Part shown: positions 12,593 to 17,947 of the stretch, in pieces | How positions within the stretch are numbered: position 1 is the stretch's first letter | Layout of the letters: every line of letters starts with the position of its first letter | Assembly: GCF_000429925.1 (NCBI RefSeq) | Contig: NZ_AUCU01000041.1 | Span: forward strand, 1-42,446 | Direction of reading: 5' to 3' | Source: Desulfatirhabdium butyrativorans DSM 18734 | Lineage (GTDB): Bacteria > Desulfobacterota > Desulfobacteria > Desulfobacterales > Desulfatirhabdiaceae | DNA length: 42,446 nucleotides | The notes under the pieces: model-generated | What the model was told of the DNA's origin: nothing | Databases searched by the model: none | What the model saw: only the letters and a program-made list of their open reading frames with translations | Translations under genes and position numbers: made by a program

Positions 12593-15274
12593 ATGAACCC
12601 AGAATCCGGCCTGACCGTCATCACCACCCATCTCAATGCGGATTTCGATGCGCTGGCATCGATGCTGGCCGCACAGAAGCTCTACCCGGATGCGCTGGTG
12701 GTTTTCCCCGGATCGCAGGAAAAGAATCTTCGAAATTTTTTCATCAGCTCGATGGCTTACCTGTTCAATATGGCCGATATCCGATCCATCGATTTTTCAG
12801 CGATTCGCCGTCTGGTTCTGGTAGACACCAGACAGCCGTCCCGGATCGGCAAATTCGCCGAAATCCTGCACAACCCCGGCACCGAAATTCACGTCTACGA
12901 CCATCACCCTCCGATGCAGACCGACATCCGGGGGCACGCGGAATACTGCCGGATCACCGGAGCCACCGTCACGCTGCTGTGTGAGCTGATTCGTAAAAAA
13001 GGAATCGAAATTACGGCAGACGAAGCTACCGTCATGTGTCTGGGTATTTACGAAGACACGGGTTCCTTCACCTTTCCCTCGACGACGGCCGAGGATTTTC
13101 TGGCAGCAGCCCACCTGCTCTCCTGCGGCGCCAACCTGAACACGATCTCCTCCATGCTGGCCCGCGAAATCAGCCCTGAGCAGGTATCCCTGCTGAACGA
13201 AATGATCCAGTCGGCAAACCGCTATGCCGTCAAGGGCGTCGAAGTGGTGGTCACCACCGTTTCCTCCGATCGCTACGTCCCCGATTTTGCGTTTCTGGTC
13301 CACAAACTAGTCAAGATGGAAAACCTGGCCGCCCTGTTTGCCGTGGCATCGATGGAAAACAAGATTCATATCGTCGGCCGCAGCCGGGTACCCGAGGTGG
13401 ATGTGGGCGCCATCCTCTCGAGACTGGGCGGAGGGGGGCACGGATTCGCCGCATCGGCCACGCTCAAGGACTATACCCTGGTCCAGGCCGAGCAGAAGCT
13501 TGTCGAAATCATCTATCAAACGGTTCGCCCGCGAAGGCTCGCCCGGGACATCATGTCCTCGCCAGCCATCACCATCGGCCCCACCATGACCTGCAAACGG
13601 GCTGCTGAAATGCTCAACCGGTACAACATCAACGCCTTGCTGGTCACCGATCCCGCTCAGGGCCAATCCCCCCTTCTGGGCTACATTTCCCGTCAGGTCA
13701 TTGAAAAGGCCCTCTACCACCATCTGGACGAGGTGGCGGTCCGGGAGTATATGACAAGCGACATGGCCTGGGTGTCACCTGAGGCGGATCTGGCCGAAAT
13801 CCAGCAGAAAATCATCGAAAACAAGCAACGTATTCTGCCTGTCGTCCAGGACGATAAAATCATGGGGGTTGTCACGCGAACGGACTTGCTCAATCTCATC
13901 GCGCGGCAGTCCAGCATTGATATGGCCAATGAATCGGGGAATTTTCAGGATATCATCCAGGCCCGAACCCGGAACATCCTGCCGGTGATGATCGAGCGGC
14001 TTTTCCCCCACCAGCTCCAGCATCTGCGGAACATCGGCTCGGTTGCACGGGAAATGGGAATCGAAGCCTTCGTCGTGGGCGGTTTTGTGCGAGACATGTT
14101 TCTCAACCGGCCCAACGACGACATGGATATCGTGGTGGAAGGCGACGGCATCGCCTTTGCAAGGCAATATGCATCCGCCACAGGCGCCCGGGTGCACACC
14201 CATGGCCATTTCGGCACTGCGGTCATCACCTATCCCGACGGGTTCAAAATCGATGTGGCCACGGCACGCATGGAATATTACCAGTTTCCCACAGCCCTGC
14301 CCATTGTGGAGATGAGCTCGATCAAGCTCGATCTTTTCCGCCGGGATTTTACCATCAACACCCTGGCCATCCAGCTCAACCCGGACAAATTCGGGATCCT
14401 GATCGATTTTTTTGCGGGCCAGAAGGACATCAAGGAAAAAGCCATCCGGGTCCTGCACAACCTCAGTTTCGTGGAAGATCCCACCCGGGCCTTCCGGGCC
14501 ATCCGGTTCGAGCAGCGCTTCGGGTTCAACATGGGCAAGCTCACGGCAGGATTGATCGAAAATGCCGTCAAAATGGATTTTTTCTCCCGCCTGAGCGGCA
14601 GAAGGGTTCTGAACGAGCTTCGTCAGATCTTTGGTGAGCAAAACCCCATCCCGGCCATTTTCCGCCTGAACGAATTTCAACTGCTCCGCGTCATCCATCC
14701 AAATTTTCAGCTCTCCGCAGACAAGGCCACACTGCTTGCAGGCGTGAAAAGCATACTGACATGGCACGAGCTGTTGTTTCTCGAAGAGCCGATTCAGAAA
14801 TGGATCATCTATTTTCTGGTCATGATGAAAGGCTATGATCTCAAAACGGCAGAAGATATTTTTACCCGCCTGGAAATGCCTGTAAAAATCAGAGAAATAC
14901 TGGGAAAAGAGAGGATTGTCGCCGAAAAGACCCTGGCCTGGCTGGAGCGGCATTCACCGGTGTTGAACAGTGTCCTGTGCGATCATCTTGCAGATATCCG
15001 CACCGAAGTGCGCCTTTACATGATGGCATTGGCCAGACAGGAAGGGGTCAAGCGGGCCATATCGCAATACTTCGTCAAACTGCGATTCCTCAAGCCGATA
15101 ACGACCGGAGAAGACCTCAAGCGCATGGGGTATCCGCCGGGTCCGATTTTCAAGGACATACTGCTCGGCATCCGCAACGAAAAGCTCAATGGTCATCTTG
15201 AAACCAAAGAAGACGAGATCCGTTTCATTCAGGAACATTTCCCCCTTCCCGAAGTTGGAAAAAAACCGGATTGA
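12593..15274 (+). CDS. DHH phosphoesterase-CBS-CBS-tRNA nucleotidyltransferase fusion
   Basis: The 893-residue protein joins three modules. Residues ~1-310 are a DHH/DHHA1 phosphoesterase of RecJ/NrnA type: THLNADFDALAS, VLVDTRQP, VYDHHPP, YEDTGSFTFPS, and the nucleic-acid loop GGGGHGF. All four catalytic motifs look intact. Residues ~315-445 are a CBS pair (ARDIMSSPAITIGP, VREYMTSDMAWVSP) that would bind adenine nucleotides. From ~490 comes a class II CCA/poly(A) nucleotidyltransferase with VGGFVRDMFLNRPNDDMDIV (the DxD metal site), RRDFTINTLA and EDPTRAFRAIRFEQRF. The fusion is known in deltaproteobacteria and some thermophiles. Whether it adds CCA or only A cannot be told. The ATG at 12593 lacks a strong Shine-Dalgarno; the domain begins within ten residues. 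Confidence 0.92.
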   Translation: MNPESGLTVITTHLNADFDALASMLAAQKLYPDALVVFPGSQEKNLRNFFISSMAYLFNMADIRSIDFSAIRRLVLVDTRQPSRIGKFAEILHNPGTEIHVYDHHPPMQTDIRGHAEYCRITGATVTLLCELIRKKGIEITADEATVMCLGIYEDTGSFTFPSTTAEDFLAAAHLLSCGANLNTISSMLAREISPEQVSLLNEMIQSANRYAVKGVEVVVTTVSSDRYVPDFAFLVHKLVKMENLAALFAVASMENKIHIVGRSRVPEVDVGAILSRLGGGGHGFAASATLKDYTLVQAEQKLVEIIYQTVRPRRLARDIMSSPAITIGPTMTCKRAAEMLNRYNINALLVTDPAQGQSPLLGYISRQVIEKALYHHLDEVAVREYMTSDMAWVSPEADLAEIQQKIIENKQRILPVVQDDKIMGVVTRTDLLNLIARQSSIDMANESGNFQDIIQARTRNILPVMIERLFPHQLQHLRNIGSVAREMGIEAFVVGGFVRDMFLNRPNDDMDIVVEGDGIAFARQYASATGARVHTHGHFGTAVITYPDGFKIDVATARMEYYQFPTALPIVEMSSIKLDLFRRDFTINTLAIQLNPDKFGILIDFFAGQKDIKEKAIRVLHNLSFVEDPTRAFRAIRFEQRFGFNMGKLTAGLIENAVKMDFFSRLSGRRVLNELRQIFGEQNPIPAIFRLNEFQLLRVIHPNFQLSADKATLLAGVKSILTWHELLFLEEPIQKWIIYFLVMMKGYDLKTAEDIFTRLEMPVKIREILGKERIVAEKTLAWLERHSPVLNSVLCDHLADIRTEVRLYMMALARQEGVKRAISQYFVKLRFLKPITTGEDLKRMGYPPGPIFKDILLGIRNEKLNGHLETKEDEIRFIQEHFPLPEVGKKPD

Positions 15275-15342: not shown

Positions 15343-15681
15343 GAGCCGTTTGCCAAAGTCCTTCGGCGTCATTTCGGCGAAAGCCGGAATCCAGTTCTTT
15401 TCAGTACATTCTGCACCCCTCCTGCCGGCGGCTTCAACCACCTTCCCTGCTGCACCGCGAAAGCAACCCGCCCCCCGAACGCCCGCCATTCCCGATTCCT
15501 GTCCGGGCCGAACAATTGCCTTGCATATCGTCTCCAAAATCGATAGATATTCCGTTTCAATTTGGGCCATTCGCTTTTCCGGACTGGCGATGGCCCGCAA
15601 TCCATCAACTGCGCAACCACAGCGGGCATAGGATCGATTTTCACAACAGAGACAGGATCTGTTTCTGTTTTGCCATCAGGT
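15343..15681. other. Gene-poor spacer with a GTCATTTCGGCGAAAGCC-type palindrome
   Basis: About 15368-15391 carries the palindromic motif CGTCATTTCGGCGAAAGCCG, akin to the cores near 18048 and 41810. Minus-strand frames across 15400-15644 are open but overlap each other and read into the repeats. One (beginning MRAIASPEKRMAQIETEYLS from 15600) is conceivable as an old gene fragment, but I recognise no family and no ribosome site. Confidence 0.4.
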
Positions 15682-15742
15682 GGGTCAATTGCAAAAGTTC
15701 TGCTGCGTCATGCCGACGAAATCCCGCTTTACAATTGGCTCA
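15682..15742. repeat. Short MITE-like copy (both ends, almost no interior)
   Basis: GGGTCAATTGCAAAAG at the left and TTTACAATTGGCTCAG at the right are the two inverted ends of the family whose longest copy is at 41789-41940. They enclose only about 30 bp (TGCGTCATGCCGACGAAATCC). It looks like an internally deleted member, just upstream of the CBS gene. Confidence 0.7.
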
Positions 15743-15787
15743 GATACCAGCGTCGTTTTCTTCAATCCGTCAAGAAGGAGGGTTCCG

Positions 15788-16378
15788 GTGAAATCGTACA
15801 AAGTGAAAGACCTCATGGTACCACTGGCCGAGTATGCTACCGTCGATGAAGACGCCAGCCTTTTCGAGGCGGTCACTGCCCTGGAGAAGGCCCAGATCGA
15901 ATACGACCACAGCGCCTACAAGCACCGGGCCATTCTGATTCTCGACAAGGCGGGAAAGGTCGTAGGCAAAGTCAGCCAGCTCGACATATTGCGCGCACTC
16001 GAACCCAAATATGACGAAATGCAGGGCAGCGAAGGCCTGGCCCGTTTCGGGTTCAGCAAAAAATTCATGAAATCCCTCCTGCTGCAATACCGGCTTTTCG
16101 AAAATCCCCTGGAGGATATCTGCAGAAAGGCCTGTGAAAAACAGGTCAAGGAATTCATGCACAGACCGACAGAAGGCGAATACGTCGACATGGAGGCCAC
16201 CCTCGATGAGGCCATCCACCAACTGGTGCTCGGCCACCACCAATCGCTGATCGTCACCCGGGATACGGATATCGTTGGAATTCTGAGGCTGACCGACGTG
16301 TTTGCGGCTGTCTTCCATATCATGAAACAATGCCAGGCAGAACACGCGGAATCGGGTCAGAGCTGCGAAAAAACATAA
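15788..16378 (+). CDS. CBS-pair domain protein
   Basis: The 196-residue protein is almost entirely a pair of CBS domains: VKDLMVPLAEYATVDEDASLFEAV... with KAGKVVGKVSQLDIL near 5-70, and VKEFMHRPTEGEYVDMEATLDEAI with DTDIVGILRLTDVF near 118-180. No other domain is present, so it is probably an adenine-nucleotide-sensing regulator. The start is the GTG at 15788, chosen because AAGGAGG lies 7 nt upstream. A frame open from 15680 would run through a repeat. The anion transporter gene follows 99 bp downstream in the same direction. A role in setting transporter activity by energy charge is possible but only inferred. Confidence 0.85.
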   Translation: MKSYKVKDLMVPLAEYATVDEDASLFEAVTALEKAQIEYDHSAYKHRAILILDKAGKVVGKVSQLDILRALEPKYDEMQGSEGLARFGFSKKFMKSLLLQYRLFENPLEDICRKACEKQVKEFMHRPTEGEYVDMEATLDEAIHQLVLGHHQSLIVTRDTDIVGILRLTDVFAAVFHIMKQCQAEHAESGQSCEKT

Positions 16379-16477
16379 AGTCGAACGCCGGTCTCTGGCC
16401 AACGGCCCCCATAGCGCCATACCCGATTGGATCACACCCAGCATCGAATTCATCATGGAGTTTACAGGAGAAAACCG

Positions 16478-17947
16478 ATGTCACAAGCCATAGAAGCCGA
16501 AACACCACAAACCGACTGGAAACGCCCGCTGTTTCTGATTCTCGGAATCGTCTTGTTCGCCATCGTCTACTATTCGCCCCCCTGGCCCGATGCCATCGAT
16601 CCAATGGGGAAAAATTTTGTATTGAGCCGAGAGGGAAAAGGCGCCCTGGCCGTATTCCTTCTGGCCGGCACCTGGTGGGTATTCGAAGTACTGCCCATCG
16701 GGGTCACCAGTATCGCCATCGGTGTCCTGCAGGTCCTTTTCCTGATCCGCCCTCCGGAAAAAGCCTTCAAGGATTTCATGGACCCGAGCGTGCTGTTCAT
16801 CTACGCATCGGTGGCCATCGGGCTCGTGTTCACCAAGACCGGCCTTACCAAACGGCTGGCCTACAAGATGCTGATGGTTGTCGGTGAGAAAACCAGCGCC
16901 ATCTACCTGGGATGCATGGTGGTGACGGCGCTTCTGACGCATATCATGGCGCACACGGCCGTTGCGGCAACCATTTATCCGCTGCTGCTGGCCATCTATT
17001 CACTGTATGGGGAGGGGGACAAACCCACCCGCTTCGGCAAGGGCCTGTTCATGAGCATGGCCTACGTGGCTGGCGCAGGCAGCATCATCACCCTGCTGGG
17101 TGCTGCCCGGGGCGCGGTTGCCGTTGGGTTTTTCAAGGACATTGTGGGCAGGGAAATCACGTTTTTCGGTCTGTCCTATTACCTGTTTCCCCTCGGCTGG
17201 GTCATGGTTTTCCTGCTGTGGGGGTTTTTCATGATTTTTTTCAAACCCGAAAAAAAGTCCATTCCGGGACTCCGGGAAAAAGCCCGGCAACTGAACGCCC
17301 AACTGGGATCGCTCACCCGGAACGAAATTCTGGCCGCAGGCATCGTATTGAGCTGTATCGTCGTCCTGTCGCTTCGCTCCTTCTTCCCGGCGCTCAACAA
17401 ACTGGACAAGACGGCCATCATCCTCATCTCCACGCTCCTGTTTTTCATCTTCAACATTCTGGACATCGAAGATCTGGAAAACGTCCCCTGGAACATCATC
17501 CTGCTGTTCTCCGGTGCCATGAGCATCGGCTTCTGCCTCTGGGAAACCAATGCCGCCAAATGGCTGGCCGTCAACTGGCTGGTCATGTTCCAGAAGGCCA
17601 ACTGGTTCATCTTCATCATGAGCATCGCCTTCTTTGTCCTCGTCATGACCAATTTCATCATGAACGTGGCGGCCATCGCCATCTCCCTGCCCGTCGCCCT
17701 GGTGATCGCCCCTTATCTCCATGTGGCGCCCGAAGTCATTTTCTTTTCCGCCCTGGTTGCCGCAGGCATGCCCTTCATGCTGCTGGTCGGCGCGGCGCCC
17801 AATGCCATCGCCTACGACTCGAAACAATTTACATCCGGGGAGTTCTTCAAATACGGCGCCCTGGCCAGCATCATGCTGATGATCGTTCTGGCGGTTTTTA
17901 TTACCGTCATCTGGCCGCTCATGGGCATGCCCATCACGATCAAATGA
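16478..17947 (+). CDS. SLC13/DASS-family anion (dicarboxylate-type) transporter
   Basis: The 489-residue polytopic membrane protein has about 11-12 hydrophobic segments and the two-repeat plan of divalent anion:Na+ symporters. The paired substrate/Na+ motifs appear as THIMAHTAVAATIYP in the first half and VGAAPNAIAYDSKQF near the C-terminus, with TNFIMNVAAIAISLPVAL just before. The SNT motifs of typical dicarboxylate carriers read HTA and APNA here, so the substrate (C4-dicarboxylate, citrate, sulfate or another anion) cannot be fixed. Start ATG at 16478-16480 is preceded by ACAGGAGAAAACCG, a good ribosome site. Its partner upstream encodes a CBS pair. Confidence 0.88.
   Translation: MSQAIEAETPQTDWKRPLFLILGIVLFAIVYYSPPWPDAIDPMGKNFVLSREGKGALAVFLLAGTWWVFEVLPIGVTSIAIGVLQVLFLIRPPEKAFKDFMDPSVLFIYASVAIGLVFTKTGLTKRLAYKMLMVVGEKTSAIYLGCMVVTALLTHIMAHTAVAATIYPLLLAIYSLYGEGDKPTRFGKGLFMSMAYVAGAGSIITLLGAARGAVAVGFFKDIVGREITFFGLSYYLFPLGWVMVFLLWGFFMIFFKPEKKSIPGLREKARQLNAQLGSLTRNEILAAGIVLSCIVVLSLRSFFPALNKLDKTAIILISTLLFFIFNILDIEDLENVPWNIILLFSGAMSIGFCLWETNAAKWLAVNWLVMFQKANWFIFIMSIAFFVLVMTNFIMNVAAIAISLPVALVIAPYLHVAPEVIFFSALVAAGMPFMLLVGAAPNAIAYDSKQFTSGEFFKYGALASIMLMIVLAVFITVIWPLMGMPITIK

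What the first reader, a model, noticed from the sequence alone, without database searches (positions are those of the whole stretch)
12593..15274. Phosphoesterase, nucleotide sensor and tRNA nucleotidyltransferase in one chain
Seen: intact DHH/DHHA1 motifs, a CBS pair and an intact class II nucleotidyltransferase core within 893 residues. Known: this fusion occurs in several lineages but, as far as I recall, its combined function is not established. Inference: a nuclease that trims 3' ends or degrades nanoRNA, tied to an enzyme that rebuilds the tRNA 3' end, and tuned by adenylates, would be a self-contained tRNA end-maintenance machine.
Basis: partly seen in the sequence, partly recalled or inferred. 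Interest (0 to 1): 0.5.

Follow-up and report, generated by a model that had tools for sequence, protein, structure and literature searches.

The report
A-adding tRNA enzyme with phosphodiesterase half
This gene encodes a widespread, already described type of tRNA-tail enzyme joined to a small-nucleotide-cutting enzyme and a nucleotide sensor; it probably adds only the last letter of the tRNA tail with the help of a second enzyme in the same cell, and what the cutting half does is still unknown.

Summary
In detail: window 12593-15274 (+) is an intact 893-residue DHH-DHHA1-CBS-CBS-class II nucleotidyltransferase. The genome holds a second class II nucleotidyltransferase (G000:C7, 477 aa) whose flexible loop is 13 residues shorter, the published hallmark of bacterial CC-adding enzymes. 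The window protein keeps the full loop and is most like the A- and CCA-adding enzymes of Aquifex and Thermotoga. It is best read as the A-adding half of a pair, not a self-contained machine. Four of the 44 tRNA genes found, including the only His and only Lys-UUU genes, lack an encoded CCA, so both enzymes are probably essential. The DHH metal ligands are intact in 121 of 124 rows. The best studied relative cuts 2-4 nt RNAs from the 5' end, which argues against 3'-end trimming. The fusion is full-length in 119 of 148 genomes sampled across the phylum, and the T. maritima version is in print. The role of the DHH-CBS half stays open, but natural controls exist: 112 of 143 relatives also carry it as a separate protein; some have the polymerase half alone; 17 of 20 listed genomes without a c-di-AMP synthase have a fusion-sized enzyme; nine have the fusion without a detectable partner.

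The parts
12593..15274 (+). whole gene, 893 aa, DHH-DHHA1-CBS2-class II tRNA nucleotidyltransferase
12617..13048 (+). DHH domain (residues 9-152), metal ligands H13, D17, D19, D78, H104, H105; D155 lies just behind it
   Evidence: Pfam PF01368; ligand columns
13283..13522 (+). DHHA1 domain (residues 231-310) with R263-S264 and GGGGH283
   Evidence: Pfam PF02272; columns
13538..13903 (+). CBS pair (residues 316-437); second repeat has GVVTRTD (ribose-binding type motif, recalled), first lacks the Asp
   Evidence: Pfam PF00571, two stretches, best 383-437; columns
13913..13963 (+). low-confidence linker (residues 441-457) between the two halves
   Evidence: pLDDT under 50; median pairwise identity of residues 438-465 is 0.16, against 0.47-0.55 for DHHA1, CBS and DHH, 0.66 for the catalytic head and 0.37 for the tail half
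14066..14449 (+). nucleotidyltransferase head (PolyA_pol, residues 492-619)
14267..14344 (+). flexible loop region R559-R584, 26 residues, as in A- and CCA-adding enzymes
   Evidence: 26 residues in 124 of 124 fused rows; 13 in the second enzyme of this genome
14573..15247 (+). neck, body and tail helices (residues 661-885)
   Evidence: predicted structure and VIA-align match to 3h38 over 456-884

Best explanation
The protein is the A-adding member of a split CCA-adding system. A separate enzyme (G000:C7, 477 aa) adds C74 and C75; the C-terminal half of the window protein then adds A76, both on the few tRNAs whose genes lack CCA and in repair of damaged ends. The N-terminal half is a working DHH-DHHA1 phosphodiesterase of the kind that cuts very short oligonucleotides (pNpN, 2-4 nt RNA), under control of an adenylate-binding CBS pair and tied to the polymerase by a flexible linker. 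Its likely job is to clear or sense short RNA ends and adenylates near the polymerase and to adjust A-addition to the state of the ATP pool. Steps: domains, motifs, partner gene and tRNA genes are shown from sequence; A-only specificity is inferred from the partner's loop deletion; activity, substrate and ligand of the DHH-CBS half are inferred from relatives.
For: Match to NF041569 'A-adding tRNA nucleotidyltransferase' (960 bits, residues 8-881 of 893). Best folds: T. maritima CCA enzyme, Z 37.6 over 456-884, and 4wby (Aquifex A-adding enzyme, recalled), Z 36.8 over 460-867; GdpP catalytic domain with pApA, Z 27.4 over 4-311. Second enzyme in the genome with a loop 13 residues shorter; the short loop is the published hallmark of bacterial CC-adding enzymes (PMC3925840 section 10; PMC7014341 passages). 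40 of 44 tRNA genes found encode CCA; the only His-GTG, Lys-TTT and Glu-CTC genes do not. DHH ligands intact in 121 of 124 rows. Two confident halves with a low-confidence linker (mean pLDDT 85.6, pTM 0.49).
Against: The protein scores 960 bits on NF041569, below its curated cut-off of 1440. A- and CCA-adding enzymes of this clade were not told apart by any test here: nine relatives have the same fusion with no detectable partner, and in one of them (G127) the only tRNA-Thr(TGT) gene lacks CCA, so there the same architecture should make all of CCA. The partner's EDxxR motif reads KDPLR, and partners in nine other loci have loops of 17-26, so the 13-residue hallmark is not shared by all partners. 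The genome has three other small DHH-DHHA1 proteins (328, 433 and 329 aa), so the fused copy need not do bulk nanoRNA turnover. In T. maritima the N-terminal domains are not needed for CCA addition (PMC8208693 passage).
Confidence: 0.6

Rival explanations
1. One reading: one self-contained machine that trims the tRNA 3' end with its DHH nuclease and rebuilds it, tuned by adenylates.
For: Nuclease and polymerase are in one chain with intact motifs; repair of CCA is a normal duty of such enzymes (established knowledge).
Against: A second, loop-deleted nucleotidyltransferase is present. The best studied DHH-DHHA1 RNase acts on 2-4 nt RNA from the 5' end (PMC9757072 passages). The halves are joined by a low-confidence linker with pTM 0.49, so no fixed handover path is predicted (monomer only). 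Some relatives have the polymerase half alone (G037, G052).
Confidence: 0.06
2. The DHH-CBS half is a c-di-AMP or pApA phosphodiesterase that links c-di-AMP signalling to tRNA A-addition.
For: Best structural match of residues 4-311 is the GdpP catalytic domain with pApA (Z 27.4), and TmPDE follows. The genome has a CdaA-like diadenylate cyclase (177 bits against a cut-off of 188.8 for CdaA). None of the six DHHA1 proteins of the genome is a GdpP: they are AlaRS, RecJ, the fusion and three of 328-433 aa, so another protein must cut c-di-AMP if it is made.
Against: 36 of 143 relatives have no cyclase match; of the 20 of these that are listed, 17 have a PF01743 frame of 895-995 aa, and the six of those 17 that I aligned have all ligands (L004, L010, L014, L021, L030, L031). 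B. subtilis NrnA did not act on c-di-AMP (PMC9757072 passage). DHH-DHHA1 folds are too alike for a fold match to name the substrate.
Confidence: 0.2
3. The window enzyme is a complete CCA-adding enzyme and the second enzyme is redundant or has another RNA substrate.
For: T. maritima homologue with the same kinds of domain is a full CCA enzyme (PMC3925840 section 10; PMC8208693 passages). Nine relatives have the fusion and no detectable partner.
Against: The second enzyme of this genome has the CC-adding loop deletion and intact GGxxRD, DxD and RDFT motifs; a CC enzyme alone would be useless without an A-adding one.
Confidence: 0.2
4. The DHH half is a catalytically dead scaffold for dimer formation or CBS positioning.
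For: In one relative (G078; rows L009 and L088 are the same gene) the motif IV Asp is Ala while the polymerase motifs are intact; some relatives have the polymerase half alone.
Against: All ligands and the GGGGH histidine are conserved in 121 of 124 rows; of the other three, two are that one gene and one lacks the N-terminal residues at a contig end. The DHH domain is more conserved than the tail of the polymerase (median pairwise identity 0.55 against 0.37).
Confidence: 0.12

Closest known systems
Thermotoga maritima CCA-adding enzyme (PDB 3h37-3h3a, 5hc9)
   Same: Class II nucleotidyltransferase half aligned over 456-884, Z 37.6, 33% identity; the native protein also carries 'Nrn' and CBS domains (PMC8208693 passages).
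   Different: The T. maritima enzyme adds all of CCA alone (PMC3925840); here a second, CC-type enzyme is present. The solved chains are 441 residues, i.e. the polymerase part.
[quoted passage not shown] entry identity recalled)
   Same: Z 36.8 over 460-867, 33% identity; works with a separate CC-adding enzyme (PMC3925840 section 10).
   Different: Whether AaL has the same N-terminal half was not checked here; the solved chains are 390-410 residues.
NF041569 A-adding tRNA nucleotidyltransferase (A-tRNAntase)
   Same: Whole length, model positions 2-875 of 880.
   Different: 960 bits against a curated cut-off of 1440, so not an accepted member. Geobacter sulfurreducens CC- and A-adding enzymes are cited in PMC8208693 (passages) and in the reference list of PMC7014341; the primary paper was not held.
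GdpP / TmPDE / NrnA (DHH-DHHA1 phosphodiesterases)
   Same: Fold of about residues 4-313 (Z 27.4 down to 20.2), ligands and GGGGH.
   Different: Here fused to CBS and a polymerase; the NrnA equivalog model gives 55 bits against a cut-off of 350. In Bacilli a clustering of DHH-DHHA1 domains separates CCA-adding enzymes from NrnA, RecJ and GdpP (PMC9757072 passage).
Stand-alone DHH-CBS protein of relatives (433 aa, L038 in this genome)
   Same: Same domains in the same order, 32% identity over residues 7-433.
   Different: No polymerase half; found in 112 of 143 relatives at 52% identity or more (counted). I ran no paper search aimed at it.

Membership tests
Bacterial class II tRNA nucleotidyltransferase (AaL / TmCCA group) | Catalytic GG-x-x-RD and DxD | tested here: met
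   G496 G497 R500 D501 D510 D512 in 124 of 124 rows
Bacterial class II tRNA nucleotidyltransferase (AaL / TmCCA group) | RRDFT and EDxxR nucleotide-template motif | tested here: met
   R583 R584 D585 and E628 D629 R632 in 124 of 124 rows
Bacterial class II tRNA nucleotidyltransferase (AaL / TmCCA group) | Head-neck-body-tail fold | tested here: met
   Z 37.6 to 3h38 over 419 residues, rmsd 3.2, on a predicted model
A-adding or CCA-adding (not CC-adding) enzyme | Full-length flexible loop | tested here: met
   26 residues R559-R584 in 124 of 124 rows; 13 in the partner
A-adding enzyme (A only) | Separate CC-adding enzyme in the genome | tested here: met
   P0002, G000:C7, by loop deletion only; its activity is not shown
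A-adding enzyme (A only) | Adds A to tRNA-CC and does not add CC | not testable with these tools
   needs an assay
NF041569 equivalog (A-tRNAntase) | Curated cut-off of 1440 bits | tested here: not met
   960 bits
DHH-DHHA1 phosphoesterase superfamily | Metal ligands of motifs I-IV and GGGH | tested here: met
   H13 D17 D19 D78 D103 H104 H105 D155 H283
NrnA equivalog (NF053633) | Curated cut-off of 350 bits | tested here: not met
   55 bits
c-di-AMP phosphodiesterase | Hydrolyses c-di-AMP or pApA | not testable with these tools
   only indirect: synthase not found in genomes that keep a fusion-sized enzyme
CBS pair | Two CBS repeats, family above Pfam cut-off | tested here: met
   76.2 bits against 24, two stretches
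Adenylate-binding CBS | G-x-[IV]-T-x-x-D motif (recalled) | tested here: inconclusive
   present in repeat 2 (G 124, T 120, D 118 of 124 rows), Asp absent at that place in repeat 1

The most novel reading that the evidence does not exclude
The DHH-CBS half is a portable adenylate-gated short-RNA phosphodiesterase that exists both alone and fused to the tRNA polymerase, and in the fused form it sets how far the polymerase goes: the same fused enzyme is A-only where a CC partner exists and makes all of CCA in relatives that have lost the partner, with the N-terminal half removing short or wrong primers so that only real tRNA ends are extended.
Probability: 0.12. Interest if true: 0.6.

Novelty: new member of a known kind. 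Interest (0 to 1): 0.24.

Why it matters
tRNA tails must be complete for protein synthesis, and many members of this phylum seem to use a division of labour in which one enzyme carries an apparently active nuclease and sensor of unknown purpose. The survey supplies natural controls that make the old question testable: relatives with the polymerase half alone, with a separate copy of the nuclease half, without a detectable c-di-AMP synthase, and without a detectable CC-adding partner.

Tried and rejected
Self-contained end-maintenance machine: rejected because a second nucleotidyltransferase with a CC-type loop is in the genome.

Decayed or dead DHH half: rejected as the general case, though one relative, G078, has lost the motif IV Asp.

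c-di-AMP as obligatory substrate or ligand: weakened by genomes without a synthase match that have a fusion-sized enzyme.

Poly(A) polymerase (PcnB): the window protein scores 70 bits against a cut-off of 306 and the genome has only two PF01743 proteins. Defence system: no PADLOC match at 0.001. Plasmid carriage: four plasmid records match at 1e-20, one over the whole length, in a cyanobacterium.

Sole nanoRNase: the genome has no match to the Orn model NF003765 (the control rang in 3 of 14 named genomes), but it has three other small DHH-DHHA1 proteins, and other kinds of nanoRNase were not searched.

Gene neighbourhood as a clue: of the window plus 80 related loci, flanks of 33 hold a gene of the peptidase M50 cluster, 44 of the scpA cluster and 37 of the scpB cluster (one member of each, from L202, named). 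Order and distance were not tested for each locus. The window gene does not have these neighbours. The trpS cluster was chained to unrelated frames and I do not count it.

Rows dropped or doubled: L268 gave no qualifying frame. L009 and L088, and L022 and L085, are the same genes counted twice; other doubles between the two genome collections were not sought. In one search seven partner loci (L285, L288, L290, L072, L073, L075, L076) failed my motif filter and their loops were not compared. Of the loci compared, four (L070, the window's own genome; L071, L074, L296) have the 13-residue loop and nine have 17-26, so the hallmark is clear for the window's own genome and not for every relative.

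Tree: the partner label of most 'plus' rows rests only on two or more PF01743 stretches, and long branches are present.

Primary papers on Geobacter and on the phylogeny of these enzymes were not held. In nine paper searches (listings, with passages or sections of five papers) I saw no experiment on the DHH-CBS half beyond the statement that it is not needed for CCA addition.
Full report
What is there. The frame 12593-15274 (+) is one intact gene of 893 codons plus stop. Pfam finds DHH, DHHA1, CBS in two stretches and the PolyA_pol head, each family above its cut-off. AlphaFold2 on a 60-row alignment gives mean pLDDT 85.6 but pTM 0.49, with a break in confidence at residues 441-457: two well-formed halves on what looks like a flexible linker. 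The linker is also the least conserved part (median pairwise identity 0.16; 0.47-0.55 for DHHA1, CBS and DHH, 0.66 for the catalytic head, 0.37 for the tail). VIA-align places 456-884 on the T. maritima CCA-adding enzyme (Z 37.6, 33% identity) and 460-867 on 4wby (Z 36.8; the Aquifex A-adding enzyme, entry identity recalled), and 4-311 on the GdpP catalytic domain with pApA (Z 27.4), followed by TmPDE, mycobacterial NrnA, a Deinococcus RecJ-like protein and Bacillus NrnA.

Second enzyme in the genome. There is: G000:C7 holds a 477-aa nucleotidyltransferase with PolyA_pol, RNA-binding and HD domains, found as two PF01743 pieces over the cut-off. Between the conserved Arg of the head (559 of the window protein) and the RRDFT motif, the window protein has 26 residues and the second enzyme 13. 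A shortened flexible loop is the published hallmark of bacterial CC-adding enzymes, and the loop is needed for A but not for CC (PMC3925840, section 10 read; PMC7014341, passages read). So the pair reads as CC-adding (G000:C7) plus A-adding (window). Against: the second enzyme's EDxxR motif reads KDPLR. PMC8208693 (passages and section 15 read) states that some delta-proteobacteria have CC- and A-adding pairs and others a CCA enzyme only, and cites work on Geobacter sulfurreducens that I could not open. NCBIfam carries the architecture as 'A-adding tRNA nucleotidyltransferase', but the window protein scores 960 bits against a cut-off of 1440, so I do not file it as an accepted member of that equivalog.

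Is the activity needed? Of the 44 tRNA genes found in the genome (97.3% complete) 40 encode CCA; Lys-TTT, His-GTG, Glu-CTC and one Met-CAT do not. The His-GTG, Lys-TTT and Glu-CTC genes are the only ones found with their anticodons. Complete CCA synthesis, hence both enzymes, is probably essential; this is inference.

The DHH half. In the window protein plus 123 related rows (one of 124 loci dropped, two genes present twice) all DHH ligands and the GGGGH histidine are intact in 121 of 124; two exceptions are one gene (G078, motif IV Asp to Ala) and one lacks its N-terminus at a contig end. But the inferred 3'-end trimming does not follow: B. subtilis NrnA prefers 2-4 nt RNA and starts at the 5' end, does not act on c-di-AMP or pAp, RecJ is 5'-3', and earlier reports on NrnA's direction disagreed; in Bacilli a clustering of DHH-DHHA1 domains separates CCA-adding enzymes from NrnA, RecJ and GdpP (PMC9757072, passages). 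In T. maritima the N-terminal domains are not needed for CCA addition (PMC8208693 passage). The genome's six DHHA1 proteins are AlaRS, RecJ, the fusion, a stand-alone DHH-CBS protein of 433 aa (32% identical to residues 7-433), an NrnA-like protein of 328 aa (101 bits against a cut-off of 350) and a third DHH protein of 329 aa. No Orn was found with NCBIfam NF003765. The fused copy is therefore one of several candidates for short-RNA turnover.

Distribution. In the class survey 145 of 146 genomes have PF01743 and 135 have two or more matching stretches, though some are one gene in two pieces, as here. Across the phylum 135 of 148 genomes match the window protein at 1e-30: 119 over residues 9 or earlier to 857 or later (five of these rows with one stop counted by the tool), nine in part, five (G153, G189, G194, G254, G276) over the polymerase half alone, and two (G205, G231) too weakly to be among the listed rows; 13 have no match (recount). 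In the class survey G037 and G052 (genomes of about 2 Mb) also have the polymerase half alone, with the 26-residue type of loop by eye, and no DHH-CBS match at 1e-10. The stand-alone DHH-CBS protein occurs in 112 of 143 genomes at 52% identity or more, with pieces in three more (counted; recount).

c-di-AMP. The genome has a CdaA-like diadenylate cyclase. But 36 of 143 genomes have no match; 20 of these are listed, and 17 of the 20 have PF01743 in a frame of 895-995 aa, two are G037 and G052, and for G018 the row was not shown. A c-di-AMP role is possible here but is unlikely to be the general reason for the fusion.

Partner loss. Nine genomes (G022, G048, G058, G065, G086, G106, G127, G139, G142) have the fusion and no second enzyme by two searches; four of them show a further weak hit outside the fusion, which matches only the HD side of the query or later. 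A tree of 29 fused proteins needs five gains or losses of the partner, at least three forced by well supported branches (long branches present, labels partly alone). In G127 the only Thr-TGT gene and one Met-CAT gene lack CCA (42 of 44 encode it), so its fused enzyme should make all of CCA; its close relative G112 has the partner and 43 of 44 encoded. Assembly gaps could hide a partner in single genomes, less so in four of the five sampled genomes of one genus (g39).

Verdict. A real, intact and ordinary member of a known architecture, misread as self-contained. The open part is the role of the DHH-CBS half.

Noticed in passing
L038 847-2148 (+), G000:C26: Stand-alone DHH-DHHA1-CBS-CBS protein of 433 aa, the N-terminal half of the fusion without the polymerase, found in 112 of 143 genomes of the class at 52% identity or more.
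   Followed up: partly
L282 3820-5079 (+) and L283 (G037, G052): Polymerase half alone, and no DHH-CBS match or c-di-AMP synthase match in these two genomes of about 2 Mb.
   Followed up: partly
G127, G065, G058, G139 and five others: Fused enzyme without any detectable CC-adding partner; in G127 the only tRNA-Thr(TGT) gene lacks CCA.
   Followed up: partly
L009 / L088 (G078): Motif IV Asp of the DHH half is Ala while the polymerase motifs are intact; a natural dead-nuclease candidate.
   Followed up: no
window 15680-16378 (+) and 16427-17947 (+): A small CBS-pair protein followed by a sodium/sulfate symporter lies downstream; flanks of many related loci instead hold peptidase M50, scpA and scpB genes.
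   Followed up: partly
G111, L089 1048-2154 (-): A 368-aa nucleotidyltransferase unlike P0002 with what looks like a short loop, possibly an alternative CC-adding partner.
   Followed up: no
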